Assembly (NCBI GenBank): GCA_000017645.1
Contig: CP000781.1
Location: 124,001 to 188,000, forward strand
Direction of reading: 5' to 3'
Length of the DNA: 64,000 nucleotides
From: Xanthobacter autotrophicus Py2
GTDB lineage: Bacteria > Pseudomonadota > Alphaproteobacteria > Rhizobiales > Xanthobacteraceae
The notes below the pieces were generated by a model. The model saw nothing but the letters and a program-made list of their open reading frames with translations. It was not told the DNA's origin and made no database searches. Made by a program: the position numbers and the translations under genes. Of the stretch, positions 12,880 through 44,956 are shown in pieces (within the stretch, counting starts at the first letter, position 1; every line of letters begins with the position of its first letter).

Positions 12880-12922
12880 GAATTCGCTCCGAGCCCTTCA
12901 CCACGGCTTCGGATAGTGACTA

Positions 12923-13043: not shown

Positions 13044-13059
13044 TGTCAGGAAGGCGACA
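13044..13059. promoter_or_regulatory. NifA upstream activator site of fixABCX
   Basis: TGTCAGGAAGGCGACA is an exact TGT-N10-ACA, about 107 bp upstream of the fixA -24 element, the usual distance for NifA action by DNA looping. Confidence 0.75.
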
Positions 13060-13303
13060 GCTGCGCGGGCGGGATGGTTCGTGTCGGCCCTTGCACCGGA
13101 ATTTTGCGAGCGCTTCGCGGTGGCGCGTCACAATTGCGACGGACGGGCGGTGGGGTGTCCGGATTTCTGTCGGGAGGCTGTCGCGTTCGTGTCGCGTCGC
13201 GACCCGTTGCGCGGAACGTCAGTGTCGAGTTGGGAGGGAAGCGGCCAGGCCGAAATGCGTACGGGGCACATCCGACGAACGGCTGGCAATGATGACGCCC
13301 AGC

Positions 13304-13333
13304 AAAAGGTCCCTCGCCCGAAGGCGAGGGACC
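13304..13333 (-). terminator. Intrinsic terminator of nifH
   Basis: An 11-bp perfect stem (13308-13318 with 13323-13333) closes a TTCG loop on the minus strand, C(UUCG)G in RNA, the very stable tetraloop. It is followed by TTTT (complement of 13304-13307). It lies 164 nt downstream of the nifH stop codon. Confidence 0.85.
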
Positions 13334-13455
13334 GGGACGTCTGAGAAGTCTTGCGCCTAAGCTGCATGAAAGGCGTATCAAAAAGGTCACGCGGAGCCTT
13401 CTGAAATATTCGTGGCAAGACCAGTGCGGCTTGCCTCGTGGCTCGGCGTCCGGGG

Positions 13456-13484
13456 CGATGGGCCGGCACGGGGCCGGCCCATCG
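13456..13484 (-). repeat. Strong hairpin immediately after nifH
   Basis: CGATGGGCCGGC and GCCGGCCCATCG form a perfect 12-bp stem with a five-base loop, starting 12 nt beyond the nifH stop codon. There is no T-run after it on the minus strand. Hairpins at this place are known to protect nifH mRNA in other diazotrophs; the same role here is inferred. Confidence 0.65.
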
Positions 13485-13496
13485 AAGTCGTCAGCC

Positions 13497-14441
<945 letters not shown>

Positions 14442-14549
14442 TCAGCAATATCGGTCGGAAACGCCCCGCGGGTTACGGGAAGGAGCGCTACGCTGGCAGG
14501 TGGCCTAGGCGTGCACTCAGCCCTCACTCGCTGTTGCGCCAAGGAAAGA

Positions 14550-14564
14550 GCAACCAGCGTGCCA
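14550..14564 (-). promoter_or_regulatory. Sigma-54 -24/-12 promoter of nifH
   Basis: Minus-strand TGGCACGCTGGTTGC is a perfect match to TGGCACG-N4-TTGC. Predicted start is near 14538, giving a leader of about 160 nt before nifH. Confidence 0.9.
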
Positions 14565-14633
14565 CTCGGCCCTGGCGCCCCCAAATCTTTGATTTGCATC
14601 AAAATCCGGGCGTCAGGGCGGGCTGGAACATGG

Positions 14634-14649
14634 TGTGTCGAACGCGACA
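14634..14649. promoter_or_regulatory. NifA upstream activator site, nifH-proximal
   Basis: TGTGTCGAACGCGACA is an exact TGT-N10-ACA about 70-85 bp upstream of the nifH -24 element. Confidence 0.8.
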
Positions 14650-14663
14650 GCCCCTTTTTGCTG

Positions 14664-14679
14664 TGTCGGGATTAAAACA
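14664..14679. promoter_or_regulatory. NifA upstream activator site, nifH-distal
   Basis: TGTCGGGATTAAAACA is an exact TGT-N10-ACA, 30 bp (about three helical turns) from the proximal site, so two NifA oligomers could sit on the same DNA face. Confidence 0.75.
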
Positions 14680-14685
14680 ACTGGT

Positions 14686-14735
14686 GCGCATGCGGACGCC
14701 CGCGTGTCTGAAAGCATTCGCGCGCATGCGGACGC
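14686..14735 (+). repeat. Direct repeat GCGCATGCGGACGC (two copies, 36 bp apart)
   Basis: Identical 14-mers start at 14686 and 14722 within the nifH/receiver control region. Looser relatives occur near 14763 (CGCATGTG) and 14902 (CGCATGCGGGCG). No known binding protein is suggested by the sequence. Confidence 0.4.
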
Positions 14736-14853
14736 GGGCTCGCGGGCGGTCGGGGGCGCTCGCGCATGTGAGCGCGCACTACGCGTGCGCGGGCGTTGAA
14801 ACACAGGGTGAACGGCGCCCGGCGCTGCGTCTGGCCGCCGTCTCCGCCGGCTC

Positions 14854-14869
14854 GGGAACGGAACTTGCT
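14854..14869 (+). promoter_or_regulatory. Sigma-54 -24/-12 promoter of the receiver-modD operon
   Basis: GGGAACGGAACTTGCT has GG (14855-14856) and GC (14867-14868) at the right spacing, a perfect TTGCT -12 half and two mismatches in the -24 half. Start would be near 14880, about 82 nt before ATG 14962. The NifA pair at 14634-14679 is about 180-220 bp upstream. Confidence 0.6.
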
Positions 14870-14961
14870 TGACGCGGAATTTGCGCGCCCGGCCCGCTTG
14901 TTCGCATGCGGGCGGGGGACGGGTGAAAGCCCCGGCGAGGGGAAGACGAGCGAGGGTTAAG

Positions 14962-15396
14962 ATGCAGATCGGCGTTGAGACTTCCAAGGCGGTGGACCAG
15001 CGGCGCGTCTTCGTGGTGGACGAGGACGAGATCACGCGCGCGGCGCTTCAGTTCATGCTGCACGACGAGATCGAGACCCACGAGCTCGCCACGCCGGAGG
15101 AAGCCTATGAGAAGGGAACGGGCTGGCTGGTGCCGCACGTCATCCTGCTCGGCGTGTCTCTGCTGAAGGCGCGCGGCGACGGCCTTATCGCCGAGATGAA
15201 GGCGAAATTCCCGGACGTGCGCATCCTGATCGTCACCGACAAGTCGGACGAGGCGGTTGCGGTGGGCGGCCTCAAGGCCGGCGCCCATGGCGCAGTGGTG
15301 AAGCCGCTGACGCTGGAAGCCGTGCGCAAGAAGGTGGACACCGTGCTCGGCCGTGGCGGCGCCGCCCCGCTGGTCCAGCTCACCGTGATGAAATAG
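14962..15396 (+). CDS. Degenerate response-regulator receiver protein (phospho-Asp missing)
   Basis: 144 aa, a single receiver-like domain without an output domain. The acidic pocket (VVDEDE, residues 18-23), the Thr of LIVTDKS (T92) and the Lys of VVKPL (K114) are kept, but the strand that should end in the phosphorylated Asp reads VILLGVSLL, with Gly64 in its place. It therefore cannot be phosphorylated in the usual way and is likely a protein-interaction module. GAGGG precedes ATG 14962; an in-frame start at 14869 would fall in the promoter. It leads an operon with a NifO-like protein, a double nitroreductase, a rhodanese and modD. Confidence 0.8.
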   Translation: MQIGVETSKAVDQRRVFVVDEDEITRAALQFMLHDEIETHELATPEEAYEKGTGWLVPHVILLGVSLLKARGDGLIAEMKAKFPDVRILIVTDKSDEAVAVGGLKAGAHGAVVKPLTLEAVRKKVDTVLGRGGAAPLVQLTVMK

Positions 15397-15402
15397 CCGC
15401 TC

Positions 15403-15834
15403 GTGGCCATTGTCACCTTCTACGAGAAGCCGGGCTGCGGCACCAATGCCCGGCAGAAGCTCGCCCTTGCCAATGCGGGTCACACGCTGGAGGTCCGCAG
15501 CCTGCTGACCGAGCCCTGGACCGCCGAGCGCCTGCGCGGCTTCTTCGGTGACACCCCGGTCGCCGCCTGGTTCAACCCGGCGGCGCCGAAGGTGAAATCC
15601 GGCGCGGTGGATCCCTCGGCCGTCGATGCGGAGGCCGCCATCGCGCTGATGCTGGCCGAGCCGCTGCTCATCCGCCGCCCGCTGGTGGAGACGGAGAACG
15701 GGCGCTGCGCCGGCTTCGACCGGGAGCCGGTCCTGTCCCTGCTGGGGCCGTCCGATCCGGGCGCGCGGCCTCTCGAAGGCTGCTCCAGCCCGCTCGCGCC
15801 GTGTCCGGACCCGGCCGAACGCAAGGCGTCCTGA
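15403..15834 (+). CDS. ArsC/Spx-family nitrogenase-associated protein, NifO-like
   Basis: 143 aa. The N-terminal FYEKPGCGTNARQKLALANAGH is the thioredoxin-fold ArsC/Spx start, with one cysteine (C12) but not the full arsenate-reductase residue set, as in nitrogenase-associated NifO/ArsC-like proteins. The start is GTG 15403, just six nt after the receiver stop codon, pointing to coupled translation. The C-terminal tail is Pro/Cys-containing (EGCSSPLAPCPDP). NifO has been connected to molybdenum use in Azotobacter; the same role here is inferred. Confidence 0.75.
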   Translation: MAIVTFYEKPGCGTNARQKLALANAGHTLEVRSLLTEPWTAERLRGFFGDTPVAAWFNPAAPKVKSGAVDPSAVDAEAAIALMLAEPLLIRRPLVETENGRCAGFDREPVLSLLGPSDPGARPLEGCSSPLAPCPDPAERKAS

Positions 15835-15837
15835 ACC

Positions 15838-17508
15838 ATGAATGCTGCCCCGCCCGTTGCCCGCCCGGCCGATACGGCGCTCGCCTATCACACGCGCACC
15901 AAGCACAGCCTCAAGGCCTATGCAGCGGGGCCGGAAACCCTGGACTGGGACGCCCAGCCCAATCCCTTCCGGGAGTTCGAGGGCTGCCCGCGCCTGGCCC
16001 TGCCGCTGGCGGCGGAAGGGCTGGCGGCCACCTATGGCGAGATGGTCACGCCAGGTGCGGTGCCACCGGCGCCATTGGACCTTGCCGGCGTCGCGCTGCT
16101 GCTGGAACTCTCCTTCGGCCTCGCCGGCTGGAAGCAGTATGGGCCGGACCGCTGGGCGGTGCGCTGCAATCCCTCCAGCGGCAATCTGCACCCCACCGAG
16201 GCCTATGTGCTGGCGTCCAACGTCGCCGGCCTGCCCGACGGGGTTCATCACTATGTCAGCCGCGACCATGTGCTGGAGCAGCGCTACGCCGCGCGGGCTT
16301 CGACCTCGGTCGCCTTTGCCAGCGCCTCGGGCTTCGCCATGCAGCGCAGCTTCGCGCGGTCCCCGGCTGGGCCGGCGCGGCTGCATCTGGCACTGTCCTC
16401 CGTCCATTGGCGCGAGGCGTGGAAATACGGCGAGCGGGCGTTCCGCTATTGCCAGCTCGATCTCGGCCACGCCCTTGCCGGCGTGCGCTATGCCGCCGCC
16501 TGCCTTGGCTGGAACGCAAGCATGGTGGAAGGCGTCAGCAGCGCGGAGATCGCGCGCCTGGGCGGCTTCGACCGTGAGGCGGACTTTGCCGGGGCCGAGC
16601 GGGAGGATCCCGACATCCTCATCCAGATCACACCGGGGCCTGCCCTCGCTGTCGCGCCGCCCGAGCCCGACACCCGGGGCTGGACCGGGACGGCCAACGT
16701 GCTGGACCGGCACAAGCTCTATCGCTGGCCGGTGATCGATGCGGTCAGCGCTGCCACCCATGGTGGCACGGGCGCGTCCGATCCGGCGGCGGCCGCTGCC
16801 CCAGAGCTGCCGCCGCGCGTGGTGACGAACGGGGCACAGGCGTCCGCCGTCATCCTCGGCCGCCGCAGCGCCCAGCGCTTTGAGGCCAAGAACAGCACCA
16901 TGCCGCAGGATGTCTTCTTCGGCATGCTGGATGCGCTCATGCCCCGGGATGCGGCGCCCTTCGATGCCTGGGGCTTCACCCCGCGCATCCACCCTCTTCT
17001 GTTCGTCCATCGGGTGGAGGGCCTTGCCCCCGGCCTTTACGCCCTGCCGCGGCGCGAGGGGATCACCGGCGCGCTGAAGGCAGCGCTCCGCAACGATTTC
17101 CAGTGGGTGAAGCCGGAGGCCTGCCCGGACCACCTGCCGCTGTATCGGCTGGTGGAGACTGACTGCCGCGGCATCGCCCGCACCATCAGCTGCCATCAGG
17201 CCATCGCCAGCGACAGCAGCTTCGCCCTGGCCATGCTCAGTGAGTTCGAAGCCACCGTGGCGGCGGACCCGTGGCGCTATCGCCAGCTGCATTGGGAAGC
17301 CGGGCTCGTTGGCCAGGTGCTCTATCTGGAAGCGGAGGCGGCCGGGTTCCGGGGCACCGGCATCGGCTGCTTCTTCGACGACGACCTGCACCGGCTGGTG
17401 GGGCTGGAAAGCCTCGAGTTCCAGTCCCTCTATCATTTCACGGTGGGGCGCCCCGCCATCGACACCCGCATTACCACCGAGCCGGCCTATCCGGGCCGCT
17501 CGGCCTGA
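15838..17508 (+). CDS. Tandem nitroreductase-fold protein, SagB/ThcOx family
   Basis: 556 aa with two nitroreductase-like halves. The first (about 10-260) has RTKHSLKAY and the FMN-site-like RCNPSSGNLHPTEAYVL; the second (about 325-556) has ILGRRSAQRFEAKNSTM and a family-like ending (GTGIGCFFDD, LYHFTVGRP). SagB/ThcOx enzymes are FMN-dependent dehydrogenases, many acting on azoline rings in peptides, but no azoline cyclodehydratase or precursor peptide is near. It begins 3 nt after the NifO-like gene. In this setting an FMN redox role supporting nitrogenase is more likely than peptide modification; unproven. Confidence 0.8.
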   Translation: MNAAPPVARPADTALAYHTRTKHSLKAYAAGPETLDWDAQPNPFREFEGCPRLALPLAAEGLAATYGEMVTPGAVPPAPLDLAGVALLLELSFGLAGWKQYGPDRWAVRCNPSSGNLHPTEAYVLASNVAGLPDGVHHYVSRDHVLEQRYAARASTSVAFASASGFAMQRSFARSPAGPARLHLALSSVHWREAWKYGERAFRYCQLDLGHALAGVRYAAACLGWNASMVEGVSSAEIARLGGFDREADFAGAEREDPDILIQITPGPALAVAPPEPDTRGWTGTANVLDRHKLYRWPVIDAVSAATHGGTGASDPAAAAAPELPPRVVTNGAQASAVILGRRSAQRFEAKNSTMPQDVFFGMLDALMPRDAAPFDAWGFTPRIHPLLFVHRVEGLAPGLYALPRREGITGALKAALRNDFQWVKPEACPDHLPLYRLVETDCRGIARTISCHQAIASDSSFALAMLSEFEATVAADPWRYRQLHWEAGLVGQVLYLEAEAAGFRGTGIGCFFDDDLHRLVGLESLEFQSLYHFTVGRPAIDTRITTEPAYPGRSA

Positions 17509-17528
17509 GGGACCTTCAGGAGCACGCC

Positions 17529-18320
17529 ATGAGAGAGCGCATTCCCTTCCGCTGCATCGGCGTTGAGGAGGCGGCATCCATCGTCGGCCAAGGCCGGGCC
17601 CTGCTGCTCGACGTGCGCGACGCCAATGCCTATGCCGCCGGCCATGTGGAGGGTGCGCGCAACCTTGCCTATTCCGCGCTCTCGGACGTGATCGGCACGA
17701 CCCCGAAGGCGCAGCCGGTGGTGATTTATTGCTACCACGGCAATGCCAGCCGCGAATATGCTCAGACCCTGTCGGACTTCGGCTTCGCTGCCGTGTTCAG
17801 CGTGGATGGTGGCTATGAGGCGTGGCGGGCCTTCGAAAGCGTGCCCGCGCCAACGGCGCCACTCGATGCGGCCCTGTCCAGCTGGCTGGTTGACCACGGA
17901 TTTCCCGCCGATGGCGTGAACGCGACGGCGGAAAATGGCATGACCCCGCTCATGAAGGCCTCCCAGGAGGGGCTCGCGGACGTGGTGGCGGCCCTCATTG
18001 CCGCCGGCGCGACGCTGGACGCCCGCAATGGGGATGGCAACACGGCCCTGTGGCTCGCCTGCGTCGGCAATCACCCGCACATCATCGACGCGCTGGTGGA
18101 TGCCGGCATCACCATCGACAGCCTCAACGACACCGGCGCCAGTTCGTTGATGTATGCCGCCTCCGCCGGCAAGGCCGAGGCGTTGGAAAAGCTGCTCGCC
18201 CGTGGCGCCGATCCGCGCCTGGAGACGCAGGACGGCTTCTGCGCGCTGGATCTTGCGGCCAATCTCGAATGCCTCAAGCTGCTGCGCGCCGCCACACGGC
18301 GCGAGGCCGCGCCGGCGTAA
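17529..18320 (+). CDS. Rhodanese-ankyrin repeat fusion protein
   Basis: 263 aa. Residues 1-110 are a rhodanese domain (LLLDVRDANAYAAGHVEGA; active loop YCYHGNAS with catalytic C68). Residues 130-255 hold about three and a half ankyrin repeats (NGMTPLMKASQEGLADVV, DGNTALWLACVGNHPHII, GASSLMYAASAGKAEAL). AGGAG precedes ATG 17529. It would transfer or carry persulfide sulfur to a partner held by the ankyrin repeats. Twenty nt separate it from the SagB/ThcOx gene, so it belongs to the same operon; sulfur supply to a nitrogenase metallocluster is a reasonable guess. Confidence 0.88.
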   Translation: MRERIPFRCIGVEEAASIVGQGRALLLDVRDANAYAAGHVEGARNLAYSALSDVIGTTPKAQPVVIYCYHGNASREYAQTLSDFGFAAVFSVDGGYEAWRAFESVPAPTAPLDAALSSWLVDHGFPADGVNATAENGMTPLMKASQEGLADVVAALIAAGATLDARNGDGNTALWLACVGNHPHIIDALVDAGITIDSLNDTGASSLMYAASAGKAEALEKLLARGADPRLETQDGFCALDLAANLECLKLLRAATRREAAPA

Positions 18321-18433
18321 GGGCTGCGGTGCTGCGGGTTTCCCGGCAAGCGCTTCTTTGTCCCGTAGACCATCCCGCCCGGGCGTTATAAGCCTGCCAG
18401 CTGTATCGGATCCGGCATAGGCGGGGGCGGCGC

Positions 18434-19276
18434 ATGACCTACAAATGGTGGACGCAGGCGAGCGTGGATGCCCTCCTCGCCGAGGACGCGCCCTATGGCG
18501 ACCTCACCACCGAATCCCTTGCCCTCACCGGACGCAAGGCCCGCCTCACCATGGCCATGCGGGCCGACGCCACCTTGTGCGGCGTCGAGCTGGCGCGGGA
18601 CCTGTTCCGGACCGCCGGGGCGGAGGCCGATGTGCTCGCCGCCACCGGCGCGCGGGCGCCGGCCGGCGAGACCATCCTGATGGCGCAGGGCACGGCCGGC
18701 CCCATCTTTCGCGCATGGAAGGTGGCGCAGACGCTGGTGGAATATCTCTCCGGCATCGCCACGCTTACCGCCGACATTGTGGCGACCGCCCGCGCCGTTT
18801 CGCCCGACATCGCGGTGGTGACAACGCGCAAGACCTTGCCCGGCGCCAAGGCACAGATGATCGCCGCCATCCGCGCCGGCGGGGCCTTTCCCCACCGGCT
18901 CGGATTGTCGGAAACGCTCCTGCTGTTTCCCGAGCACCAGGCCTTCCTCACCGACTCCGCCGTCGGCATTGCCGCCCTGCGCCGCGCCGCGCCGGAGAAG
19001 AAGGTGGTGGTGGAGGTGAAGACGCTGGACGAGGTGGACGCGGTGCTGCCAGCCCATCCCGACGTGCTCCAGTGCGAGAAGATGACCCCCAGCGACATCG
19101 CCGAGGTGGCCCGCCGGGTGGCGGCGCGCGCGCCGGAGACGAAAGTCGCGGCCGCCGGCGGCGTGAACCTCGCCAATGCCGCGACCTACGCCGCCGCGGG
19201 CGCCCATGTGCTGGTAACTTCCGCGCCCTATTGGGCCAGGCCGGCTGACGTGAAGGTGGTGATCTCGCCGGCCTGA
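18434..19276 (+). CDS. modD: ModD, nicotinate-nucleotide pyrophosphorylase-like molybdenum protein
   Basis: 280 aa, QPRTase fold. EDAPYGDLTTESLALTGRKA at the start, TTRKTLPGAKAQMIAAIRAGG with the family's TRKTxPG block and HRLGLSETLLLFPEH are typical of ModD, the NadC paralogue coded with molybdate transport genes in purple bacteria. It lies 113 nt after the rhodanese-ankyrin gene. No modABC transporter is present here. The enzymatic reaction of ModD is not settled; molybdenum delivery for FeMo-co is inferred from linkage. Confidence 0.85.
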   Translation: MTYKWWTQASVDALLAEDAPYGDLTTESLALTGRKARLTMAMRADATLCGVELARDLFRTAGAEADVLAATGARAPAGETILMAQGTAGPIFRAWKVAQTLVEYLSGIATLTADIVATARAVSPDIAVVTTRKTLPGAKAQMIAAIRAGGAFPHRLGLSETLLLFPEHQAFLTDSAVGIAALRRAAPEKKVVVEVKTLDEVDAVLPAHPDVLQCEKMTPSDIAEVARRVAARAPETKVAAAGGVNLANAATYAAAGAHVLVTSAPYWARPADVKVVISPA

Positions 19277-19464
19277 CCCGCGTTCGGGCAGGTGTCGTTG
19301 ATGTGCTGGAAACTTGTTTTCCACACCGGCTCCTGCGCCATTGTCCGCTCGAAAACGGTTGTTCAGCCAGGCGAACAAGAAAAACGCCGCAGCGGGCCGA
19401 CAATGACTACGTAGTTATACGGAGGTTTGCGCTCCGAAAGCGTGGGCCTTCTCTGTCATGAACC

Positions 19465-19480
19465 TGTCGAACCTCACACA
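19465..19480. promoter_or_regulatory. NifA upstream activator site, distal
   Basis: TGTCGAACCTCACACA is an exact TGT-N10-ACA, about 75-90 bp upstream of the -24 element at 19555. Confidence 0.75.
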
Positions 19481-19491
19481 AGGGATGGGGC

Positions 19492-19507
19492 TGTCGCATT
19501 CGCGACA
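19492..19507. promoter_or_regulatory. NifA upstream activator site, proximal
   Basis: TGTCGCATTCGCGACA is an exact and nearly perfectly palindromic TGT-N10-ACA, 48 bp from the -24 element. Confidence 0.75.
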
Positions 19508-36620: not shown

Positions 36621-37286
36621 ATGTTTGGATGCAGACGTGACGGACACCATGGCGGCGAGCGCCACCGGGGTGACTGGGACGATATGCGCCATGCTGGCGG
36701 CCCCGATCGTGGCGACGAATTTGGTGGCCATCGGGGCGGCCATCGCGGTGGCGGGCGCGGCGGACGGGGCGGCGGCGACATGTTCCGCATCGGCCGGATG
36801 CTGGCGCAGGGCGACCTGAAGCTGCTGGCCCTGTCGCTCATCGCCGAGCAGCCGCGGCACGGCTACGAGATCATCAAGGTGATCGAGGAGAAGACCGCCG
36901 GCTGGTATTCGCCGAGCCCAGGCGTGGTCTATCCCACCCTCACCTTCCTCGAAGAGGCGGGCTATGTGACCTCCGAGCCCGATGGCGCGAAGAAGCGCTA
37001 TGCCATTACTGGGGAAGGCACCGCCTATCTCGCCGAGAACCGCGCCTTCGCTGACGCCATCATCGGGCGCCTGTCGGAGATCGGCCTCAAGATGGGACGG
37101 GTCCGCAAGTGGATGGGGTGGAGCGAGAACGGCCCGAGCCAGGGTGCGGAACTGCCTCGCCTGGTGGAAGCCGCCCTCGAGAACCTGCGGGACGTGGCCC
37201 AGCAGAAGCTGGACGCCAATCGCGGTGCCGAGACGCGGATTGTCGAGATCCTCGCCCGCGCGGCCAACGACATCCGCGAGGCGTGA
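36621..37286 (+). CDS. PadR-family regulator with a Gly/Arg/His-rich N-terminus
   Basis: 221 aa. Residues 52-130 are the PadR winged helix (DLKLLALSLIAEQPRHGYEI, SPGVVYPTLTFLEEAGYVTS); a helical dimerisation part follows. Residues 5-52 are low-complexity and rich in Gly, Arg, His and Asp (for example GGHRGGHRGGGRGGRGGG), which could bind metal or nucleic acid. AGGAG precedes ATG 36621. Palindromes lie upstream. Target genes are unknown; the flanking xerC is transcribed away from it. Confidence 0.88.
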   Translation: MFGCRRDGHHGGERHRGDWDDMRHAGGPDRGDEFGGHRGGHRGGGRGGRGGGDMFRIGRMLAQGDLKLLALSLIAEQPRHGYEIIKVIEEKTAGWYSPSPGVVYPTLTFLEEAGYVTSEPDGAKKRYAITGEGTAYLAENRAFADAIIGRLSEIGLKMGRVRKWMGWSENGPSQGAELPRLVEAALENLRDVAQQKLDANRGAETRIVEILARAANDIREA

Positions 37287-37398: not shown

Positions 37399-37423
37399 TT
37401 TATGATGTCTCAGACATCATAAA
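37399..37423. promoter_or_regulatory. Perfect 25-bp palindrome upstream of the XRE-hyf-like operon
   Basis: TTTATGATGTC and GACATCATAAA are perfect 11-bp arms around TCA. It stands in an AT-rich island of an otherwise GC-rich region, 70-94 bp before the XRE gene start, at promoter position. The neat symmetry points to a dimeric repressor or activator, possibly the XRE protein itself. Confidence 0.65.
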
Positions 37424-37492: not shown

Positions 37493-37789
37493 ATGATCAC
37501 AGCCGCCCAGCTCCGCGCTGCCCGTGCCCTCCTCGGCCTCGACCAGCGCGCGCTCGCGGCCTTGAGCGGCCTTTCCCTGCCCACCATCCAGCGCATGGAA
37601 GCCAGCGACGGCGTCATCCGTGGCAATGTCGATTCGCTCATGAAGCTCGTGGGCGGGCTGGAGGCGGCGGGCATCGAACTCATCGCCGAAGGGGCCGTCA
37701 GCGACGCTGGCGGGCGGGGCGTGCGCCTGCGGGTGCAAATGCCTGCCCAATCGATCCTTGCCGCCCGGCGGCCGGCGGAGGAGGAGTAG
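37493..37789 (+). CDS. Small XRE-family helix-turn-helix regulator
   Basis: 98 aa. ITAAQLRAARALLGLDQRALAALSGLS is the HTH_XRE start, with LPTIQRMEASDG as recognition helix and turn; a short C-terminal beta segment follows (GIELIAEGAVSDAGGRGVRL). ATG 37493 is used instead of TTG 37484. Only 3 nt separate its stop codon from the hyfB-like start, so it is probably the first gene of that operon and its regulator. Confidence 0.82.
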   Translation: MITAAQLRAARALLGLDQRALAALSGLSLPTIQRMEASDGVIRGNVDSLMKLVGGLEAAGIELIAEGAVSDAGGRGVRLRVQMPAQSILAARRPAEEE

Positions 37790-37792
37790 GCC

Positions 37793-39838
37793 ATGCCCGA
37801 TGCCGCCTTCGCCGCACAGCTTCCCGTCAGCGGACAACTCCTCGTGGCCCTCGGCGCGGTGGCGGTGCTTCTGGCTCTCGCCGGGCTCGGTGTGGCGACG
37901 GCGCGGCGCCCCGCGGGCCGGCCGCTCGTCTATGGCGGCGCGCTGGCGGTGACACTTTTGGCCGGTCTCTCCGCCCTTACCGCCATCGCGGCGCCGGCGG
38001 CTGGGATCGTGCTGCCCCTTGGCATTCCCTGGATCGGCGCCCACCTGCGGCTCGATGCGTTGTCTGCGGTCTTCCTCGCGGTGATCAATCTCGGCGGCGC
38101 GGCGGCGAGCCTCTATGGCCTCGGCTACGGCCGGCACGATCATGCGCCGGAACGGGTGCTGCCCTTCTTCCCGGCCTTCCTCGCCGGCATGAACATGGTG
38201 CTGCTGGCGGACGACGCCTACAGTTTCCTCCTGTCGTGGGAATTCATGTCGCTGGCGTCCTGGGCGCTGGTGGTGGCCCACGACAAGGAGGCGGGCAATG
38301 TGCGCGCCGGCCTCGTCTACATCCTCATGGCCTCGTTCGGCACGCTGGCGCTGATGCTGGCCTTTGGCCTGCTCGCCGCCGGCTCCGGGGGCGGCTATGC
38401 CTTCGATGCCATGCGCGAGGCGCCGCCCGTGGGCGCCTTCGCCGCGCTGGTGCTGGCGCTTGCGCTGCTGGGGGCGGGGTCCAAGGCGGGTCTGATGCCG
38501 CTGCACGTCTGGCTGCCGCTGGCCCATCCCGCCGCGCCCAGCCACGTCTCCGCCCTCATGAGCGGGGTGATGACCAAGGTGGCGGTCTACGGCTTCATCC
38601 GCATCGTGTTTGATCTCTCCGGCCCGCCGGACTGGTGGTGGGGCATCCCGGTGCTGGGTGCCGGCGGCGTCGCGGCGGTCATCGGCGTGCTGCAGGCGCT
38701 GTTGCAGGGCGACACCAAGCGCGTGCTCGCCTATTCCACCATCGAGAATATCGGCCTCATTTTCATCGGCCTCGGGCTGGCGCTGGCCTTCTCGGCCAAC
38801 GGATTTCCCACCGCCGCCGCGCTGGCGCTCACGGCGGCGCTGTTCCATGTGCTCAACCATGCGGCCATGAAGAGCCTGCTGTTCTTCGGTGCCGGCGCTG
38901 TGCTGACCGCCACCGGCACCCGGCAGATGGAGGAACTGGGCGGCCTCATCCACCGCATGCCCACCACCAGCGTGGTGATGCTGATCGGCTGCGCCGCCAT
39001 CTCGGCCCTGCCGCCGCTCAATGGTTTTGCCTCCGAATGGCTGGTGTTTCAGGCGGTGCTGCTGAGCCCGGAGCTTCCGGTCTGGGGGCTGAAGCTGATG
39101 GTGCCGGCCGTGGGCGCGCTGATGGCGCTCGCCGCCGCGCTCGCCGCCGCCTGCTTCGTGCGGCTCTACGGCATCGCCTTCCTCGGCCGGCCGCGCAGCC
39201 CGAAGGCGAGCGAGGCCCACGAGGTGGACGCCTTCTCCCGTGCCGCCATGATCGCGCTTGCCGCCGTGTGCGTGGGCGCCGGCCTGCTGCCCGGCTTTGT
39301 CATCGATGTGCTGCAGCCGGCGGTGGGCGGCCTCGTGGGCCAGACCATGCCGGCGCAGGGCTCAGTGGCGTGGCTCTCCATCATCCCGGTGGCGGAGAGC
39401 CGCAGCTCCTACAACGGGCTGCTGGTCTTTGCCTTCACGGCACTGTCGGCGCTGCTGGCGGCCTTCGTCATCCACCGCTTCGCCTCGGGCGCGGTACGGC
39501 GGGCGCCGCCGTGGGATTGCGGCTTCCCCAATGCCAGCCCGCTGAGCCAGTATTCCGCCGCCTCCTTCGCCCAGCCCATCCGCCGGGTGTTCGCGCGCGG
39601 CCTGTTCGCGGCCCGCGAGAAGGTGGAGATGCCGCCCCCCGGCGCGCTCACTCCCGCCCGGTTCTCCTCCAGCGCGCGCGATCCCGCCTGGGCCTTCCTG
39701 TTCCTGCCCCTGACGGCGGCGGTGGACTATGTGGCCGAGCGGGCGAACCGGCTGCAATACCTCACCATCCGCCAGTATCTGGGCCTGGTTTTTTCGGCCC
39801 TGGTGCTGCTGCTTCTGGTGCTCGCCCTATGGACCTGA
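37793..39838 (+). CDS. HyfB-like proton-conducting membrane subunit
   Basis: 681 aa, about 16 membrane helices. The NuoL/M/N-type antiporter core is clear: LLSWEFMSLASWALV, GLMPLHVWLPLAHPAAPSHV (conserved Lys upstream and His/Pro helix break), GDTKRVLAYSTIENIGLIF, and AMKSLLFFGAGAV. HyfB/HycC-type subunits translocate protons. First of six subunits of an Ehr/group-4-hydrogenase-like complex; its stop overlaps the next gene. Confidence 0.88.
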   Translation: MPDAAFAAQLPVSGQLLVALGAVAVLLALAGLGVATARRPAGRPLVYGGALAVTLLAGLSALTAIAAPAAGIVLPLGIPWIGAHLRLDALSAVFLAVINLGGAAASLYGLGYGRHDHAPERVLPFFPAFLAGMNMVLLADDAYSFLLSWEFMSLASWALVVAHDKEAGNVRAGLVYILMASFGTLALMLAFGLLAAGSGGGYAFDAMREAPPVGAFAALVLALALLGAGSKAGLMPLHVWLPLAHPAAPSHVSALMSGVMTKVAVYGFIRIVFDLSGPPDWWWGIPVLGAGGVAAVIGVLQALLQGDTKRVLAYSTIENIGLIFIGLGLALAFSANGFPTAAALALTAALFHVLNHAAMKSLLFFGAGAVLTATGTRQMEELGGLIHRMPTTSVVMLIGCAAISALPPLNGFASEWLVFQAVLLSPELPVWGLKLMVPAVGALMALAAALAAACFVRLYGIAFLGRPRSPKASEAHEVDAFSRAAMIALAAVCVGAGLLPGFVIDVLQPAVGGLVGQTMPAQGSVAWLSIIPVAESRSSYNGLLVFAFTALSALLAAFVIHRFASGAVRRAPPWDCGFPNASPLSQYSAASFAQPIRRVFARGLFAAREKVEMPPPGALTPARFSSSARDPAWAFLFLPLTAAVDYVAERANRLQYLTIRQYLGLVFSALVLLLLVLALWT

Positions 39839-40782
39839 TGGCGCACATCCTGGTGCAGGGCACGCAGATGCTGCTCGTGCTCGCCCTCGCCCCGCTCCTC
39901 ACCGGGCTGGTGCGCAAGGTGAAGGCGCGCCTCCAGCGCCGGCGCGGCGCCTCCGTGTTCCAGCCCTACCGCGACCTCGCCCGGCTGCTGCGCAAGGAGG
40001 CGGTGCTGGCGCAGAACGCCTCCTGGCTGTTCCGCGTGGTGCCTTATCTCGTGTTCGCGGCCACCTGGGTGGCGGCGGCGCTGGTGCCGACCTTCGCCAC
40101 CGGACTGATCTTTTCCTGGTCGGCGGACCTCATCGCCATCACCGCCCTCATCGGCTCGGCGCGCTTCTTCCTGGCGTTGGCCGGCATGGATGTGGGCACC
40201 AGCTTCGGCGGCCTCGGATCGAGCCGGGAGGTGATGATCTCCTCGCTGGCCGAGCCGGCCATGATCATGATCGTGTTCTCCCTGGCCCTCGTCGCCCATT
40301 CCACCCAGCTCTCCACCATCGCCTCGGTGATGCTGGCCGGCGTGGGCCTCAGGGTGTCGCTGGCGTTGGCGCTGGTGGCGCTGCTGATGGTGGCAGTGGC
40401 CGAGAACGGCCGCATCCCGGTGGACAATCCCTCCACCCATCTGGAGCTCACCATGGTGCATGAAGCCATGGTGCTGGAATATTCCGGCCGCCACCTGGCG
40501 CTGATCGAGCTGGCCGCGCAGCTGAAGCTGCTGCTGTTCCTTTCGCTTGTGGCCTGCGTGTTCGTGCCGTGGGGCCTTGCCCCGGTGGGGGCGGGTGTCG
40601 CCGGAATGGTGCTGGGGATGGCGACCTATGCCGGCAAGCTCGCCGTGGGCGCGCTGCTCCTCGCCGTGTTCGAGACCTCCATCGCCAAGATGCGGGTGTT
40701 CCGCGTGCCGGACTTCCTCGGCGCGGCGCTCATGCTCGGGCTGTTGGGAACGCTGCTGCTGTTCGTGTCGGGGATCCTGTGA
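39829..40782 (+). CDS. HyfC-like membrane subunit (NuoH homologue)
   Basis: 317 aa, about eight membrane helices. RRRGASVFQPYRDLARLLRKE and ENGRIPVDNPSTHLELTMVHEAM are the conserved NuoH/HycD/HyfC blocks facing the quinone/Fe-S interface. ATG 39829 overlaps the hyfB-like stop by 10 nt; ATG 39838 (TGATG overlap) is an equally good start. It anchors the peripheral arm to the membrane. Confidence 0.88.
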   Translation: MDLMAHILVQGTQMLLVLALAPLLTGLVRKVKARLQRRRGASVFQPYRDLARLLRKEAVLAQNASWLFRVVPYLVFAATWVAAALVPTFATGLIFSWSADLIAITALIGSARFFLALAGMDVGTSFGGLGSSREVMISSLAEPAMIMIVFSLALVAHSTQLSTIASVMLAGVGLRVSLALALVALLMVAVAENGRIPVDNPSTHLELTMVHEAMVLEYSGRHLALIELAAQLKLLLFLSLVACVFVPWGLAPVGAGVAGMVLGMATYAGKLAVGALLLAVFETSIAKMRVFRVPDFLGAALMLGLLGTLLLFVSGIL

Positions 40783-41462
40783 TGATCGAGCACGCCATCA
40801 CCCCCAATCTCGTCTTCGACGTGTCCCACATGTTCGCGGGCGGGCTGGTGCTCATCTCCTTCCTGATGCTCTACCAGGACCGGCTTTACGCGCTGCTGAA
40901 CGTGTTCGCCCTGCAGGCGGTGGCTCTGGCGCTGGCGGTGGCGTGGCAGGCCTACGCCCAGGACGCGCCGCATCTCTACGTCACGGCAGGCATCGCCCTG
41001 GTGTTCAAGGCGCTGGTGATCCCGGTGGCGCTGCATCGCATGGTGGCGCGGCTCGGCATCCATCGGCAGGTGGAGACGGTGGTGTCCATCGGCCCCACCA
41101 TGCTGGCCGGCATCGCCCTCGTCGCCTTGTCCCTGGTGGTGATGCTGAAGGCTACCCCCGCCGCCGACGCGCTGGCGCGGGAAGACCTCGCCTTCGCACT
41201 CTCGGTGGTGCTGCTGGGCCTCTTGATGATGGTGACGCGGCGCAATGCCGTGAGCCAGGTGGTGGGCTTCATGTCGCTGGAGAACGGCCTGATCCTCGCC
41301 GCCACGGGGGCCAAGGGCATGCCGCTGGTGGTGGAGATCTCGGTGGCCTTCTCCGTGCTCATCGCCTTCATCGTCATCGGCATCTTCCTGTTCCGCATCC
41401 GCGAGCGGTTCGACACCGTGGATGTGGACGCCTTCGACCGCTTCCGGGGAGGGCGCGCATGA
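40782..41462 (+). CDS. HyfE-like membrane subunit (NuoK-like)
   Basis: 226 aa, about six or seven membrane helices. The C-terminal half has NAVSQVVGFMSLENGLILAA with the Glu-containing helix of NuoK/MrpC/HyfE-type subunits. Start ATG 40782 overlaps the hyfC-like stop codon (TGATG). Part of the membrane ion channel. Confidence 0.85.
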   Translation: MIEHAITPNLVFDVSHMFAGGLVLISFLMLYQDRLYALLNVFALQAVALALAVAWQAYAQDAPHLYVTAGIALVFKALVIPVALHRMVARLGIHRQVETVVSIGPTMLAGIALVALSLVVMLKATPAADALAREDLAFALSVVLLGLLMMVTRRNAVSQVVGFMSLENGLILAATGAKGMPLVVEISVAFSVLIAFIVIGIFLFRIRERFDTVDVDAFDRFRGGRA

Positions 41463-42919
41463 TCGCCTCCCTCGCCGCGCTGGCGTTCAATCCCGCGCCC
41501 GTCATCCTCACCATCCCGGCGGTGGCGGCGGTGCTGCTGGCGCTGGTTCCGTCCTATCGCGTCTCGGCAGCGCTCAATGTGAGCGCCTGCGCCCTGACGT
41601 TCCTCACCGCCCTGGCGCTGCTGGTGGCGCCGCGCATTGCCGGGCCGTTCCTCATCGTGGACGACCTCAACATCGTGTTCGTGGTGCTGAACACCTTCGT
41701 GGCCTTCACCACCAGCGTGTTCTCGGCGAGCTACATCGGCCACGAGCTGGAGACGGGGCGCCTGACGCCGCTGCACCTGCGCTTCTACCACGCCATGTAC
41801 CAGGTGCTGCTGGCGGCCATGAACCTGGCGCTCGTCTCCAACAATCTCGGCGTCATGTGGGTGGCCATCGAGGTGGCGACCCTCACCACCGTGCTGATGG
41901 TGGGGCTTTATCGCACCGAGGCGGCCATCGAGGCGGCATGGAAGTATTTCATGCTGGGCTCGGTGGGCATCGCGCTGGCCCTGTTCGGCACCATCCTCGT
42001 CTACATGGTGGCCCAGCCGGTGGTGGGCGAGGGACCGGATGGCATGATCTGGAGCGTGCTGATGAAGCGCGCACGGGATTTCGACCCGGCGCTGCTCAAC
42101 GTCGCCTTCGTGTTCCTGCTGCTCGGCTATGGCACCAAGGTGGGCCTTGCCCCGCTCCATGCCTGGCTGCCCGATGCCCATTCGGAAGGCCCAACCCCCA
42201 TCTCGGCGGTGCTGTCGGGGCTGCTGCTCAACGTGGCGCTCTATGCGGTGCTGCGCTTCAAGCTGCTGCTGGCGGCCCATCCCGGCACGCTGGCGCCGGG
42301 GCCGCTGATGATGGCCATGGGCCTCGCCTCGCTGCTGCTCGCCGGCTTCATGCTGTACCGGCGACGGGACATCAAGCGGCTGTTCGCCTATTCGTCCATC
42401 GAGCACATGGGCCTCATCGCCTTCGCCTTCGGGCTCGGCGGGCCGGTCGCCAATTTCGCCGGTCTGCTGCATATGACCATGCACAGCCTGACCAAGTCGG
42501 CCATCTTCTTCGCGGTGGGCCATGTGTGCCAGGTGAAGGGCACGCAGAAGCTTTCCGATATTCGCGGCCTCACCACCTCCCATCCGGCGCTGGGCTGGGG
42601 CCTCGTGGTGGCGGTGGCGGCTATTGCCGGCCTGCCGCCGGCCGGCGTGTTCATGAGCGAGTTCCTGCTGGTGACCTCCACCTTCGCGCACCGGCCGTGG
42701 CTCGCGCTGCCGCTGGTAGCGGGGCTGCTGCTGGCCTTCGGCGCACTGATGCTGAAGCTCTCCGGCATCGCCTTCGGCGCGCCCAGCCCGGGGAGCGACA
42801 AGGTGAAGGCGAGCCACCTGCCCATGACGGTGCATCTTGCCCTGGTGCTGGTGGCCGGGCTCTATCTGCCGCCGCCGCTGGTGGCGTGGTTCCGGCACGT
42901 GGCCGGGCTTCTGGGCTAG
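41459..42919 (+). CDS. HyfF-like proton-conducting membrane subunit
   Basis: 486 aa, about 14 membrane helices, a second NuoL/M/N-type antiporter. Motifs: NLGVMWVAIEVATLTTVLMV with the conserved Glu, GLAPLHAWLPDAHSEGPTPI, RDIKRLFAYSSIEHMGLIAF, HSLTKSAIFFAVGHV. Start overlaps hyfE-like stop (ATGA). With HyfB it gives the complex two antiporter modules. Confidence 0.9.
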   Translation: MIASLAALAFNPAPVILTIPAVAAVLLALVPSYRVSAALNVSACALTFLTALALLVAPRIAGPFLIVDDLNIVFVVLNTFVAFTTSVFSASYIGHELETGRLTPLHLRFYHAMYQVLLAAMNLALVSNNLGVMWVAIEVATLTTVLMVGLYRTEAAIEAAWKYFMLGSVGIALALFGTILVYMVAQPVVGEGPDGMIWSVLMKRARDFDPALLNVAFVFLLLGYGTKVGLAPLHAWLPDAHSEGPTPISAVLSGLLLNVALYAVLRFKLLLAAHPGTLAPGPLMMAMGLASLLLAGFMLYRRRDIKRLFAYSSIEHMGLIAFAFGLGGPVANFAGLLHMTMHSLTKSAIFFAVGHVCQVKGTQKLSDIRGLTTSHPALGWGLVVAVAAIAGLPPAGVFMSEFLLVTSTFAHRPWLALPLVAGLLLAFGALMLKLSGIAFGAPSPGSDKVKASHLPMTVHLALVLVAGLYLPPPLVAWFRHVAGLLG

Positions 42920-42928
42920 GGGCGCGCC

Positions 42929-44434
42929 ATGCAAGCCTTCGCACAGCTTCTGGAAAACGGCCGCGCCGGTCCCTGCCGGCCCTTTCCGCGCGCCGAGGTG
43001 AGTGCAGAGCAGTGGACCGCCCTCGCCGGGCATCTGGCGGCGGGCGAGCTGGTGCTCATGGGCCTATGGGGCGATGCGGGCGCCGTGCATATGGCGCTGC
43101 TGGACGAGGCATCCGGCCGGCTGGCCGTGGCGACCTTTGCCTGTGTTGGCGGCACCTTCCCCTCGGTGGCGCGCCATCACCCGCCGGCGGCGCGGCTGGA
43201 GCGCACCGTGCGCGACCTCTACGGCCTCGTGCCCGAGGGCGCACCCGACGAGCGCCCGTGGCTCGATCACGGCCGCTGGGGCACCCGCCAACCGCTGGGG
43301 GCGAACCTGCCGGCGGAGCCTGAGGGCGATGCCTATCTCTTCCTCGCGGCGGAAGGGGAGGGGCTGCACCAGATCCCGGTGGGGCCGGTGCATGCGGGCA
43401 TCATCGAGCCCGGCCATTTCCGCTTCTCCTGCTACGGCGAGACGGTGGTGCGGCTGGAAGCCCGCCTCGGCTATGTGCACAAGGGCATCGAGCGCCTCAT
43501 GGCCGGCGCGGACGTGGCGCAGGCGGCGCGGCTGGCCGGGCGCCAGTCCGGCGACAGCACGGTGGCCTATGCGCTCGCCTTCAGCCGCGCGGTGGAAGCC
43601 GCGCGTGGCGTTGGAGTGCCAGCGCGGGCTCATGCCCTGCGCGGCGTGATGGCGGAGCTGGAGCGCCTTGCCAACCATCTCGGCGACATCGGCGCCATCT
43701 GCAACGATGCCGCCTTCGCGCTGATGCTGGCCCATTGTGGCGTGCTGCGCGAGAAGGTGCTGCGGGTCTGCGCCCGCGCCTTCGGCCATCGGCTGATGAT
43801 GGATGGCGTCATCCCCGGCGGGGTGGCGGGGGATCTGGCGCGGGACGGTGTCTCGGCCATCCGCGTGCTGGTGTCCGAGGTGCGCGCCGCCTTCCCGGCG
43901 CTGGTGGAGCTTTACGACAACACCGCCTCGCTGCAGGACCGCACCGTGGGCACTGGCTTCACCCGGCCGGATTATGTCCGCCAGTTCGGCGCCGGCGGCT
44001 TCGTGGGCCGCGCCTCCGGCCGGCCCTTCGACGCACGGCGGGCGCTCGCCTATCCGCCGTATGATCGCCTGCCGTTCGAGGTGGTGGTGCGGTCCGAGGG
44101 TGACGTGAACGCGCGCATCTGGGTGCGCATCCGCGAGGTGGAGCAGAGCCTTGGCCTCATCGTGCGCCTGCTCGACACCCTGCCGGACGGTCCGGTCGCG
44201 GTGGAGGTTCCGGCGGGTCCCGGAGAGGGCCTCGCGGTGGTGGAAGGCTTCCGCGGCGACGTGCTGGCCTTCGTGGCGCTGGAGGCGGACGGGCGGGTGC
44301 GGCGTGCGCATCTGCGTGACCCGTCCTGGTTCCAGTGGCCGCTGCTGGAAACCGCCATCGAGGGCAACATCGTCGCCGACTTCCCGCTCTGCAACAAATC
44401 CTTCAACTGCTCCTATTCGGGCGTGGATCTTTAA
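42929..44434 (+). CDS. HyfG-like NuoC-NuoD fusion subunit without NiFe ligands
   Basis: 501 aa. Residues 1-140 resemble the NuoC/30-kDa part (RTVRDLYGLVPEGAPDERPW); residues 145-501 the NuoD/49-kDa or hydrogenase large subunit (GPVHAGIIEPGHFRFSCYGE, GYVHKGIERLM). The first NiFe motif, RxCGxC in hydrogenases, reads RLAGRQSGDS (201-210), and the C-terminal CxxC is replaced by a NKSFN-type end with C488 and C494 five residues apart. It therefore should not carry a NiFe centre. This is the pattern of Ehr (energy-converting-hydrogenase-related) complexes. The true electron or substrate partner is unknown. Confidence 0.88.
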   Translation: MQAFAQLLENGRAGPCRPFPRAEVSAEQWTALAGHLAAGELVLMGLWGDAGAVHMALLDEASGRLAVATFACVGGTFPSVARHHPPAARLERTVRDLYGLVPEGAPDERPWLDHGRWGTRQPLGANLPAEPEGDAYLFLAAEGEGLHQIPVGPVHAGIIEPGHFRFSCYGETVVRLEARLGYVHKGIERLMAGADVAQAARLAGRQSGDSTVAYALAFSRAVEAARGVGVPARAHALRGVMAELERLANHLGDIGAICNDAAFALMLAHCGVLREKVLRVCARAFGHRLMMDGVIPGGVAGDLARDGVSAIRVLVSEVRAAFPALVELYDNTASLQDRTVGTGFTRPDYVRQFGAGGFVGRASGRPFDARRALAYPPYDRLPFEVVVRSEGDVNARIWVRIREVEQSLGLIVRLLDTLPDGPVAVEVPAGPGEGLAVVEGFRGDVLAFVALEADGRVRRAHLRDPSWFQWPLLETAIEGNIVADFPLCNKSFNCSYSGVDL

Positions 44435-44443
44435 GGGGCGGCC

Positions 44444-44956
44444 ATGCGCAAGCTTCTCCTCCAAGGGCTTTTGAAAGCCCCGCTCACGGAGGCCGCCCCC
44501 GAGGACGCGGCGGTGGAAAAGCTCGCCGCCGAGCTGAAGGCGGCGGCGCGCGCGCGGCTCGGGCGCAGCCTGTCCATCCGCGAGGTGGATGCCGGCTCGT
44601 GCAACGGCTGCGAGCTGGAAATCCATGCGCTCGGCAATGCCTTCTACGACCTGGAGCGCTTCGGCCTGCATGTGGTCGCCTCGCCCCGCCATGCGGACGT
44701 GCTGCTGGTGACCGGGCCGGTGGCGAAGAACATGGCCGAGGCGCTGAAGCGCACCTATGACGCGACGCCGTCGCCGAAATGGGTGGTGGCGGCCGGCGAT
44801 TGCGCCATCAACGGCGGCATCTTCGCCGGCAGCTCTGCCTGCGCTGGCGGCGTGGAGGCCATCGTGCCGGTGGACCTGAGGATCCCCGGCTGCCCGCCGA
44901 CGCCGGTGGCGCTCCTGAGCGGCCTCCTCGCTTTGCTGCGGGCCGGCAAGGGCTGA
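44444..44956 (+). CDS. HyfI-like NuoB-type Fe-S subunit
   Basis: 170 aa. The four ligands of the N2-type [4Fe-4S] cluster are present: C53 and C56 (GSCNGCELE), C120 (AAGDCAINGG) and C150 (IPGCPPTP). So the cluster next to the altered active site of the HyfG-like subunit is kept even though the NiFe site is lost. Last gene of the operon; it ends 13 nt from the convergent GntR gene. No NuoI/HyfH-like 2x[4Fe-4S] subunit follows. Confidence 0.9.
   Translation: MRKLLLQGLLKAPLTEAAPEDAAVEKLAAELKAAARARLGRSLSIREVDAGSCNGCELEIHALGNAFYDLERFGLHVVASPRHADVLLVTGPVAKNMAEALKRTYDATPSPKWVVAAGDCAINGGIFAGSSACAGGVEAIVPVDLRIPGCPPTPVALLSGLLALLRAGKG

What the first reader, a model, noticed from the sequence alone, without database searches (positions are those of the whole stretch)
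37793..44956. Ehr-type membrane complex without NiFe site and without ferredoxin arm
Six overlapping genes code two antiporter-type subunits, a NuoH-like, a NuoK-like, a NuoCD-like and a NuoB-like subunit. The large subunit has lost both NiFe cysteine motifs (RLAGRQSGDS at 201-210; C-terminal C488-x5-C494), yet the NuoB-type [4Fe-4S] ligands are kept. No NuoI/HyfH subunit is present. So an ion-pumping machine with one Fe-S cluster and unknown redox partner exists here next to a nitrogen-fixation island; it may couple an unidentified reaction to proton movement.
Basis: partly seen in the sequence, partly recalled or inferred. Interest (0 to 1): 0.7.

Follow-up and report, generated by a model that had tools for sequence, protein, structure and literature searches.

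The report
Hyq: nickel-free hydrogenase-like membrane pump
The six genes encode a known but unexplained bacterial membrane machine (Hyq) that is built like a small version of respiratory complex I and is reported to handle hydrogen gas, although the metal-binding site such hydrogenases need is missing from its sequence.

Summary
The operon is already known: it is hyqRBCEFGI ("endo-hydrogenase") of Azorhizobium caulinodans. The literature lists its copy in Xanthobacter autotrophicus Py2, which this window very probably is, and reported the loss of both NiFe CxxC motifs in 2012. It fits the wider class of "Ehr" complexes.

New here:
- The four NiFe-cysteine positions are replaced near-uniformly in 82 homologues.
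- Complex I's two quinone-binding residues are also absent.
- HypD, needed to make NiFe sites, was not found in 7 of 12 hyq-bearing genomes searched.
- Beside the operon only hyqR recurs widely; no redox partner does.
- A reduced anaerobe keeps hyq although complex I, Mo/W formate dehydrogenase, PFOR and oxidases were not found; it has FixABCX, NfnAB, MenA and fumarate reductase.

Best guess: a reversible ion pump passing electrons between a low-potential carrier (reduced ferredoxin or flavodoxin, as made by FixABCX) and the quinone pool. The rival, a true hydrogenase without NiFe, has in vivo genetic support and would be extraordinary.

The parts
37399..37423 (.). 25-bp perfect palindrome TTTATGATGTCTCAGACATCATAAA, likely operator (TGATGT-N5-ACATCA)
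   Evidence: at least 11 of 12 positions matched in 19 of 42 upstream regions (window plus 41 loci) against 7 of 840 control windows; the pattern was drawn from these same regions, so partly circular; function inferred
37493..37789 (+). hyqR, XRE-type HTH regulator (open frame from TTG 37484; in-frame ATG at 37493)
   Evidence: homologue found by BLAST at 41 of 90 loci
37793..39838 (+). hyqB, antiporter-like (NuoL/HyfB) subunit; E150, K231, H352, K360, E415 conserved in at least 95% of 68 rows
39829..40782 (+). hyqC, NuoH/HycD-like subunit (ATG at 39829)
40782..41462 (+). hyqE, HyfE (NuoK-like) subunit
   Evidence: no solved-structure match at E up to 1
41459..42919 (+). hyqF, antiporter-like (NuoM/N, HyfF) subunit; E138, K227, K346, E401 conserved in at least 95% of 82 rows
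42929..44434 (+). hyqG, fused NuoC-NuoD/HycE-like large subunit; NiFe cysteines replaced by S207, S210, S495, G498; ends right after the motif, whereas HycE runs on
44444..44956 (+). hyqI, NuoB/HycG-like subunit with four [4Fe-4S] cysteines C53, C56, C120, C150

Best explanation
Identity (about 97% sure): this is the hyqRBCEFGI operon, orthologous to the A. caulinodans Hyq 'endo-hydrogenase', an Ehr complex. Mechanism (inferred, about 40%): HyqGI carries one N2-like [4Fe-4S] cluster and no NiFe site. With no ferredoxin arm, a reduced soluble carrier (ferredoxin or flavodoxin) docks directly on HyqI, and electrons pass via the cluster to a quinone or another acceptor in the remodelled HyqG cavity. 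The energy drives ions through HyqC/E/B/F. The complex runs in reverse when the quinone pool is over-reduced and the proton-motive force is high. FixABCX, encoded 25-28 kb away here, would make the low-potential carrier from NADH, so FixABCX plus Hyq together would do the job of complex I (NADH to quinone, with pumping). Shown: genes, order, family, missing ligands, conserved cluster and channel residues. Inferred: carrier, quinone, pumping, reversibility.
For: Pump residues and the four cluster cysteines are conserved. The ex-NiFe motif is uniform rather than decayed, which suggests a used site. No dedicated partner gene recurs near the operon, as expected if the partner is a shared carrier. 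In genome G170 (0.9 Mb, 50 contigs, rated 100% complete) the Hyq genes are kept and single searches found no other NuoD-like protein, no antiporter-type protein beyond hyqB and hyqF, no molybdopterin oxidoreductase such as NuoG or FDH, no NuoF-type protein, no POR, no haem-copper or bd oxidase, no Fer2 ferredoxin and no HypD. It has fixABCX and a fused NfnAB-type protein, both low-potential-carrier enzymes, MenA, and a Wolinella-type FrdCAB. FixABCX is also in this window. A. caulinodans data require Hyq for normal diazotrophic growth, with an in vivo activity that reverses with O2 supply.
Against: The NuoD quinone ligands (His and Tyr; recalled) are replaced by I159 and G208. The reported A. 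caulinodans phenotypes concern H2 itself: in nodules, H2 escapes only if both hup and hyq are deleted, which a ferredoxin:quinone enzyme does not explain simply. fixABCX does not recur beside hyq in the 90 loci. Rhizobia listed as lacking hyq have fixABCX (recalled), so Fix does not need Hyq; whether hyq needs fix was not tested across genomes. A ferredoxin or flavodoxin of G170 was not identified. No biochemistry of the complex was found.
Confidence: 0.4

Rival explanations
1. Hyq is a true H2:quinone oxidoreductase with a non-NiFe active site, as its discoverers' genetics imply.
For: A. caulinodans: hyqRI deletion raises H2 evolution 15-fold at 20 uM O2; microaerobic H2 output of 61,000 (hup deletion) falls to 14,000 when hyq is deleted too, and a nifK hup strain still evolves 56,600. 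In nodules, H2 loss rises from about 0.3 to 27 only in the hup hyq double mutant; strains without the whole hup/hyp operon, and R. centenaria without hup/hyp, are said to recycle H2, the latter as data not presented. HypD was not found in 7 of 12 hyq-bearing genomes. G170, a fumarate-reducing chain with no complex I found, would suit an H2-fed pump.
Against: No NiFe ligands; a lone [4Fe-4S] cluster has no precedent for H2 activation (general knowledge). The authors state that no cell-free assay of H2 uptake is at hand and that an additional NifA-dependent H2 source exists. The deletions also remove the regulator hyqR. I saw no nifK hup hyq triple mutant in the tables read.
Confidence: 0.17
2. 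Hyq reduces or oxidises another small substrate at the cluster-facing cavity, as recalled for the sulfane-sulfur reductase MBS, which also lacks NiFe.
For: Conserved polar cavity motif and C-terminal tail; chains of 6u8y (recalled as MBS) are among the solved homologues.
Against: No substrate-linked gene recurs widely nearby; MBS keeps a ferredoxin-type arm (recalled), Hyq does not.
Confidence: 0.15
3. The partner is a formate dehydrogenase, giving a formate:quinone pump, as proposed for other Ehr complexes.
For: Ehr subunits of Geobacter rise on formate; fdhA co-occurs with Ehr in Riflemargulisbacteria and Saganbacteria. 18 of 19 hyq-bearing genomes have some molybdopterin oxidoreductase, NuoG included.
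Against: None was found in G170; G043 has two, whose sizes and positions suggest NuoG and a NarG-like protein; no fdh gene recurs near hyq.
Confidence: 0.08
4. An ion antiporter whose redox head is structural or regulatory only.
For: Two Mrp-like subunits; no partner gene found.
Against: Four cluster cysteines in 82 of 82 rows; redox phenotypes in A. caulinodans.
Confidence: 0.08

Closest known systems
Hyq endo-hydrogenase, hyqRBCEFGI of Azorhizobium caulinodans (PMC2650096, PMC2930871, PMC3357923)
   Same: Same seven genes in the same order; same loss of both CxxC motifs; the three conserved Cys reported there (258, 491, 497) correspond to C258, C488, C494 here; the X. autotrophicus Py2 copy is listed as XAUT0165-0171
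   Different: A. caulinodans has a NifA box and sigma-54 promoter; none was found here. C488/C494 are not invariant in a wider sample (17 of 19 and 15 of 19)
Ehr complexes (Geobacter, Nitrospira, Riflemargulisbacteria; A. ferrooxidans hyfBCEFGI)
   Same: Described as group-4-hydrogenase-related and lacking NiFe ligands or hydrogenase signatures
   Different: Sequences of those members were not compared here; the partner proposed for some (formate dehydrogenase) does not recur beside hyq
E. coli formate hydrogenlyase-1 (7z0s)
   Same: Best solved homologue of G, I, B and C by phmmer
   Different: NiFe cysteines, HycB/HycF ferredoxin arm, HycH and HycI, formate dehydrogenase (recalled)
Respiratory complex I
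   Same: Homologous NuoB, CD, H, K, L/M-type subunits; neither has NiFe
   Different: No NuoA, E, F, G or I in the operon; quinone ligands absent from HyqG; CxxC rather than the adjacent CC pair (recalled) in the small subunit

Membership tests
Hyq (hyqRBCEFGI) | R-B-C-E-F-G-I order in one transcription direction | tested here: met
   B-C-E-F-G-I order also in the relatives long enough to show it
Hyq (hyqRBCEFGI) | HyqG without both CxxC motifs; Cys258/491/497 (A. caulinodans numbering) present | tested here: met
   published criterion read
Hyq (hyqRBCEFGI) | NifA box plus sigma-54 promoter upstream (A. caulinodans) | tested here: not met
   none upstream of hyqR here; of 42 upstream regions 5 hold TGT-N10-ACA, 2 a strict sigma-54 match, 0 both. 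The loose sigma-54 scan is not discriminating (23 matches in the window, 31 expected)
Hyq (hyqRBCEFGI) | H2 uptake or evolution in vivo | not testable with these tools
   reported for A. caulinodans
Ehr complex | Group-4-hydrogenase-like complex with antiporter subunits and no NiFe-coordinating residues | tested here: met
   definition read
Group 4 [NiFe] hydrogenase | Four NiFe cysteines | tested here: not met
Group 4 [NiFe] hydrogenase | Dedicated maturation (HycH/HycI in operon, HypD in genome) | tested here: not met
   no hycH/hycI in the operon, unlike Rhodovastum; HypD present in this genome but not found in 7 of 12 hyq-bearing genomes searched, of 19 known
Formate hydrogenlyase / hydrogenase-4 | HyfA, HyfD and HyfH subunits | tested here: not met
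Complex I | NADH arm (NuoEFG) and NuoI | tested here: not met
   absent from the operon; separate complex I genes at about 5.1 Mb
Complex I | Quinone-ligand His and Tyr of NuoD | tested here: not met
   I159 and G208; ligand identity recalled
Complex I-like ion pump | Charged residues of the antiporter half-channels | tested here: met
   assignment rests on recalled NuoL/M residues and the alignments

The most novel reading that the evidence does not exclude
Hyq is a fourth kind of hydrogenase: it activates H2 in the remodelled cavity next to a single [4Fe-4S] cluster, with neither NiFe, FeFe nor the Fe-guanylylpyridinol cofactor, and couples this to ion pumping and the quinone pool.
Probability: 0.1. 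Interest if true: 0.97.

Novelty: already known. Interest (0 to 1): 0.45.

Why it matters
The operon is known and common in soil and plant-associated alphaproteobacteria, yet its chemistry is a contradiction: reported hydrogenase phenotypes, but no metal site to carry them. In the held library a search for 'endo-hydrogenase' listed six papers, three of them the Hyq papers of 2009-2012 and none later devoted to Hyq. The uniform replacement motif, the missing HypD genes and a reduced anaerobe that keeps Hyq together with FixABCX, NfnAB and fumarate reductase turn this into a sharp choice: either a non-NiFe hydrogenase, or one half of a split complex I (FixABCX plus Hyq). Either answer would change how energy conservation during nitrogen fixation is understood.

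Tried and rejected
Formate dehydrogenase as obligate partner: rejected for G170. Dedicated redox partner encoded next door: clustering of flanking ORFs (75 aa or more) from 90 loci (up to 10-14 kb flanks, many cut by contig ends) gave the HTH gene (35 loci), shadow ORFs opposite it (16 and 13 loci) and a generic ABC ATPase (12 loci); every other cluster has 7 loci or fewer, among them, judged by eye, a generic short-chain dehydrogenase in 5. NifA control of this copy: no box found. C488/C494 as residual NiFe ligands: rejected by alignment.

Dead ends: literature searches returned nothing; (hyfBCEFGI) gave A. ferrooxidans, where the cluster is called non-hydrogenase. Searches listed papers on a mycobacterial formate-hydrogenlyase-like locus; listings only, not used. 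One search found no paper that I could tie to G170; one search checked passages of one candidate and it does not fit. HyqE has no solved relative by sequence. One search read the minus-strand loci on the wrong strand; redone. Tree: the quick method put the long-branched rows L020 and L023 inside the window's line; I do not rely on that placement, nor on where the root lies.

Rows dropped: conservation used only rows over 85% of the length and over 40% identity, and left out the distant L036-L039. Columns 159-166 and 243-251 of HyqG were selected by the search patterns, so their conservation means little. HypD, UbiA, bd oxidase and POR were searched in 12 of the 19 hyq-bearing genomes; COX1, NuoF, Fer2 and HyqB in two or three genomes.
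Full report
WHERE IT IS. The window is bases 124,001-188,000 of a 5,308,934-bp contig in a 5,625,098-bp, two-contig genome. These sizes match my recollection of Xanthobacter autotrophicus Py2, and the literature places that strain's operon at XAUT0165-0171, which fits a position near 0.16 Mb.

THE GENES. Six genes, B-C-E-F-G-I, run from 37793 to 44956 on the + strand, and all match the expected families (HyqE only below the model's cut-off). Three of five junctions overlap. Directly upstream is a 98-aa XRE-type HTH protein (in-frame ATG at 37493). A homologue was found by BLAST at 41 of 90 loci of relatives, usually just before hyqB, so the unit here has seven genes.

THE ACTIVE SITE. Aligned to E. 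coli HycE/HyfG and Rhodovastum HyfG, the CGIC motif reads S207-G-D-S210 and DPCYSC reads N-C494-S495-Y-S-G498. Across 83 rows (82 homologues and the window): position 207 is S in 82 and C in 1; 210 is S, A or T in 75, 5 and 3; 495 is S in 81 and A in 2; 498 is G in 83. The site is remodelled in nearly the same way throughout, not decaying. Complex I's quinone-contacting His and Tyr (recalled as T. thermophilus His38 and Tyr87) fall on I159 and G208, so those are missing as well. C258, C488 and C494 are common (80, 82 and 80 of 83) but not invariant: in a wider alphaproteobacterial sample C488 is kept in 17 of 19 and C494 in 15 of 19 (my count). The small subunit keeps all four cluster cysteines (82 of 82 rows).

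THE PUMP. Charged residues at positions I would assign to the ion half-channels (HyqB E150, K231, H352, K360, E415; HyqF E138, K227, K346, E401) are at least 95% conserved, and both proteins align over most of their length with MBH, FHL or MBS antiporter subunits. Pumping itself is inferred.

DISTRIBUTION. In an even sample of 190 genomes of the class, HyqG relatives with over 380 bits occur in 19 genomes, this one included (my count); two of these carry a second copy. 246 plasmid records have some match, 112 with one place covering at least 80% of the query; many of the rest are NuoD. More distant lineages are in Paraburkholderia, Burkholderia and Methylocalor, and another in Mycobacterium branderi and Burkholderia cenocepacia. 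In a 40-row tree the window's line, NuoD and the FHL large subunits each fall on one side of a branch (SH-aLRT 99, 99 and 100), with long-branch warnings.

NO PARTNER NEXT DOOR. Clustering ORFs from the flanks of 90 loci gave one widely recurring family with a clear link, the HTH protein (35 loci); a generic ABC ATPase recurs in 12, and no redox enzyme in more than 5 (clusters judged by eye). Many contigs end early, so a rare partner could be missed.

REGULATION. A. caulinodans hyq needs NifA and has a NifA box and sigma-54 promoter. In this window no TGT-N10-ACA lies between 27,050 and 62,217 and no sigma-54-like match lies within 1.8 kb upstream of hyqR (that scan as a whole finds no more than chance, 23 against 31). 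NifA boxes are enriched in the window overall (11 against 4.2 expected; 0 of 100 shuffles as many), nine of the eleven before position 20,000. Of 42 upstream regions 5 hold a TGT-N10-ACA and none holds it together with a strict sigma-54 match. Instead a perfect 25-bp palindrome sits at 37399-37423. The pattern TGATGT-N5(or N3)-ACATCA reaches 11 or 12 of 12 positions in 19 of 42 upstream regions against 7 of 840 similar-GC control windows and 0 of 840 shuffles. The pattern was drawn from these regions and the loci are related, so the excess is somewhat inflated. I propose it as the HyqR operator.

NICKEL MATURATION. HypD, needed for NiFe sites (general knowledge), was found in 5 of 12 hyq-bearing genomes and not in 7 (12 of the 19 were searched). 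Unless the search missed it there, Hyq cannot be a NiFe enzyme in those seven, whatever its fold.

A NATURAL EXPERIMENT. G170 is a 0.9-Mb, 50-contig alphaproteobacterium rated 100% complete, with 32-36% GC in the stretches read. It keeps hyqB near the end of one contig and (C)EFGI at the end of another. Searches found no other NuoD-like protein, no further antiporter-type protein beyond hyqB and hyqF, no molybdopterin oxidoreductase, no HypD, no haem-copper or bd oxidase, no POR, no NuoF-type protein and no Fer2 protein. It has MenA (over the model cut-off) and a Wolinella-type fumarate reductase (A and B over their cut-offs, C just below), fixABCX (FixX recognised by eye; A, B and C by family matches below strict cut-offs), a second EtfBA pair beside frdCAB, and a 772-aa fused NfnA-NfnB-type protein. 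So Hyq is the only complex-I-like pump I could find in what looks like a menaquinone/fumarate respiratory chain whose low-potential electrons run through bifurcating flavoproteins. That is the basis for proposing FixABCX plus Hyq as a split complex I. FixABCX is also in this window (9158-12879, minus strand; again FixX by eye and the others below strict cut-offs). Absences rest on one search each in a draft genome.

LITERATURE. PMC2650096 (section 3, parts 1-3 of 5 read), PMC3357923 (parts 1-4 of 5 read) and PMC2930871 (passages) describe hyqRBCEFGI. Deletion slows diazotrophic growth by about 21%. H2 evolution at 20 uM O2 is 12 in the parent, 16 without hupSL, 175 without hyq and 540 without both; below 1 uM O2 it is 7,100, 61,000, 2,600 and 14,000; a nifK hupSL strain on nitrate gives 56,600 and a nifA strain 1,100. 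The authors read this as a bidirectional H2:quinone oxidoreductase. The 2009 and 2010 papers take HyqG to carry a NiFe centre; the 2012 paper notes that both CxxC motifs are absent, that a NiFe site is 'uncertain, if not unlikely', that no cell-free H2-uptake assay is at hand, and that another NifA-dependent H2 source exists. They describe hyq as co-selected with N2 fixation in microaerophiles and absent from non-diazotrophs generally; the present spread (plasmids, Methylovirgula, Roseomonas, Burkholderia, G170) makes that doubtful, but nif genes were not tested here. Ehr complexes without NiFe and of unproven function are described in PMC6349859, PMC7894505 and PMC10284858, and A. ferrooxidans hyfBCEFGI in PMC7735108 (passages). 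[quoted passage not shown]

VERDICT. The finding is real and already in print for this strain. The unexplained part, what a NiFe-less hydrogenase homologue does, remains open; I lean to a low-potential carrier:quinone pump (0.4) over a non-NiFe hydrogenase (0.17).

Noticed in passing
L205:1391-4906; L203:2137-4455; L171:1287-6528; L163:4260-5156 (genome G170): A 0.9-Mb alphaproteobacterium, apparently anaerobic, carries fixABCX, a fused NfnAB-type protein, a second EtfBA pair beside frdCAB, and MenA; no complex I subunit or oxidase was found.
   Followed up: partly
window 37399-37423 and upstream of other hyqR genes: Recurring palindrome TGATGT-N5-ACATCA, a candidate HyqR operator, not seen described in the parts of the hyq papers I read.
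   Followed up: partly
window 36621-37286: PadR-family regulator with a His/Gly-rich N-terminal tail, just upstream of the hyq unit; possibly a metal sensor.
   Followed up: no
G056 (C61, C13) and G087 (C155, C204): Two genomes carry two divergent hyqG copies each (about 66% and 59-60% identity to the window).
   Followed up: no
L034, L037, L039, L047 (within 1.5 kb) and L040 (9 kb away): A YoaK-family membrane protein gene lies near hyq in several Rhizobium/Mesorhizobium and Burkholderiaceae loci.
   Followed up: no
L210 and L038: A second NiFe-less lineage (Burkholderia cenocepacia, Mycobacterium branderi) with hyqB-like gene last and different replacement motifs (RVSGVDS, RVEGIAS).
   Followed up: no
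L032, L044, L048, L053, L056, L065: In five Bradyrhizobium loci and one other the hyqR-like gene is on the opposite strand, mostly downstream of the operon, rather than its first gene.
   Followed up: no
window 3219-19507: Nine TGT-N10-ACA NifA-box-like sites lie in the nif/fix part of the window (11 in all against 4.2 expected).
   Followed up: no
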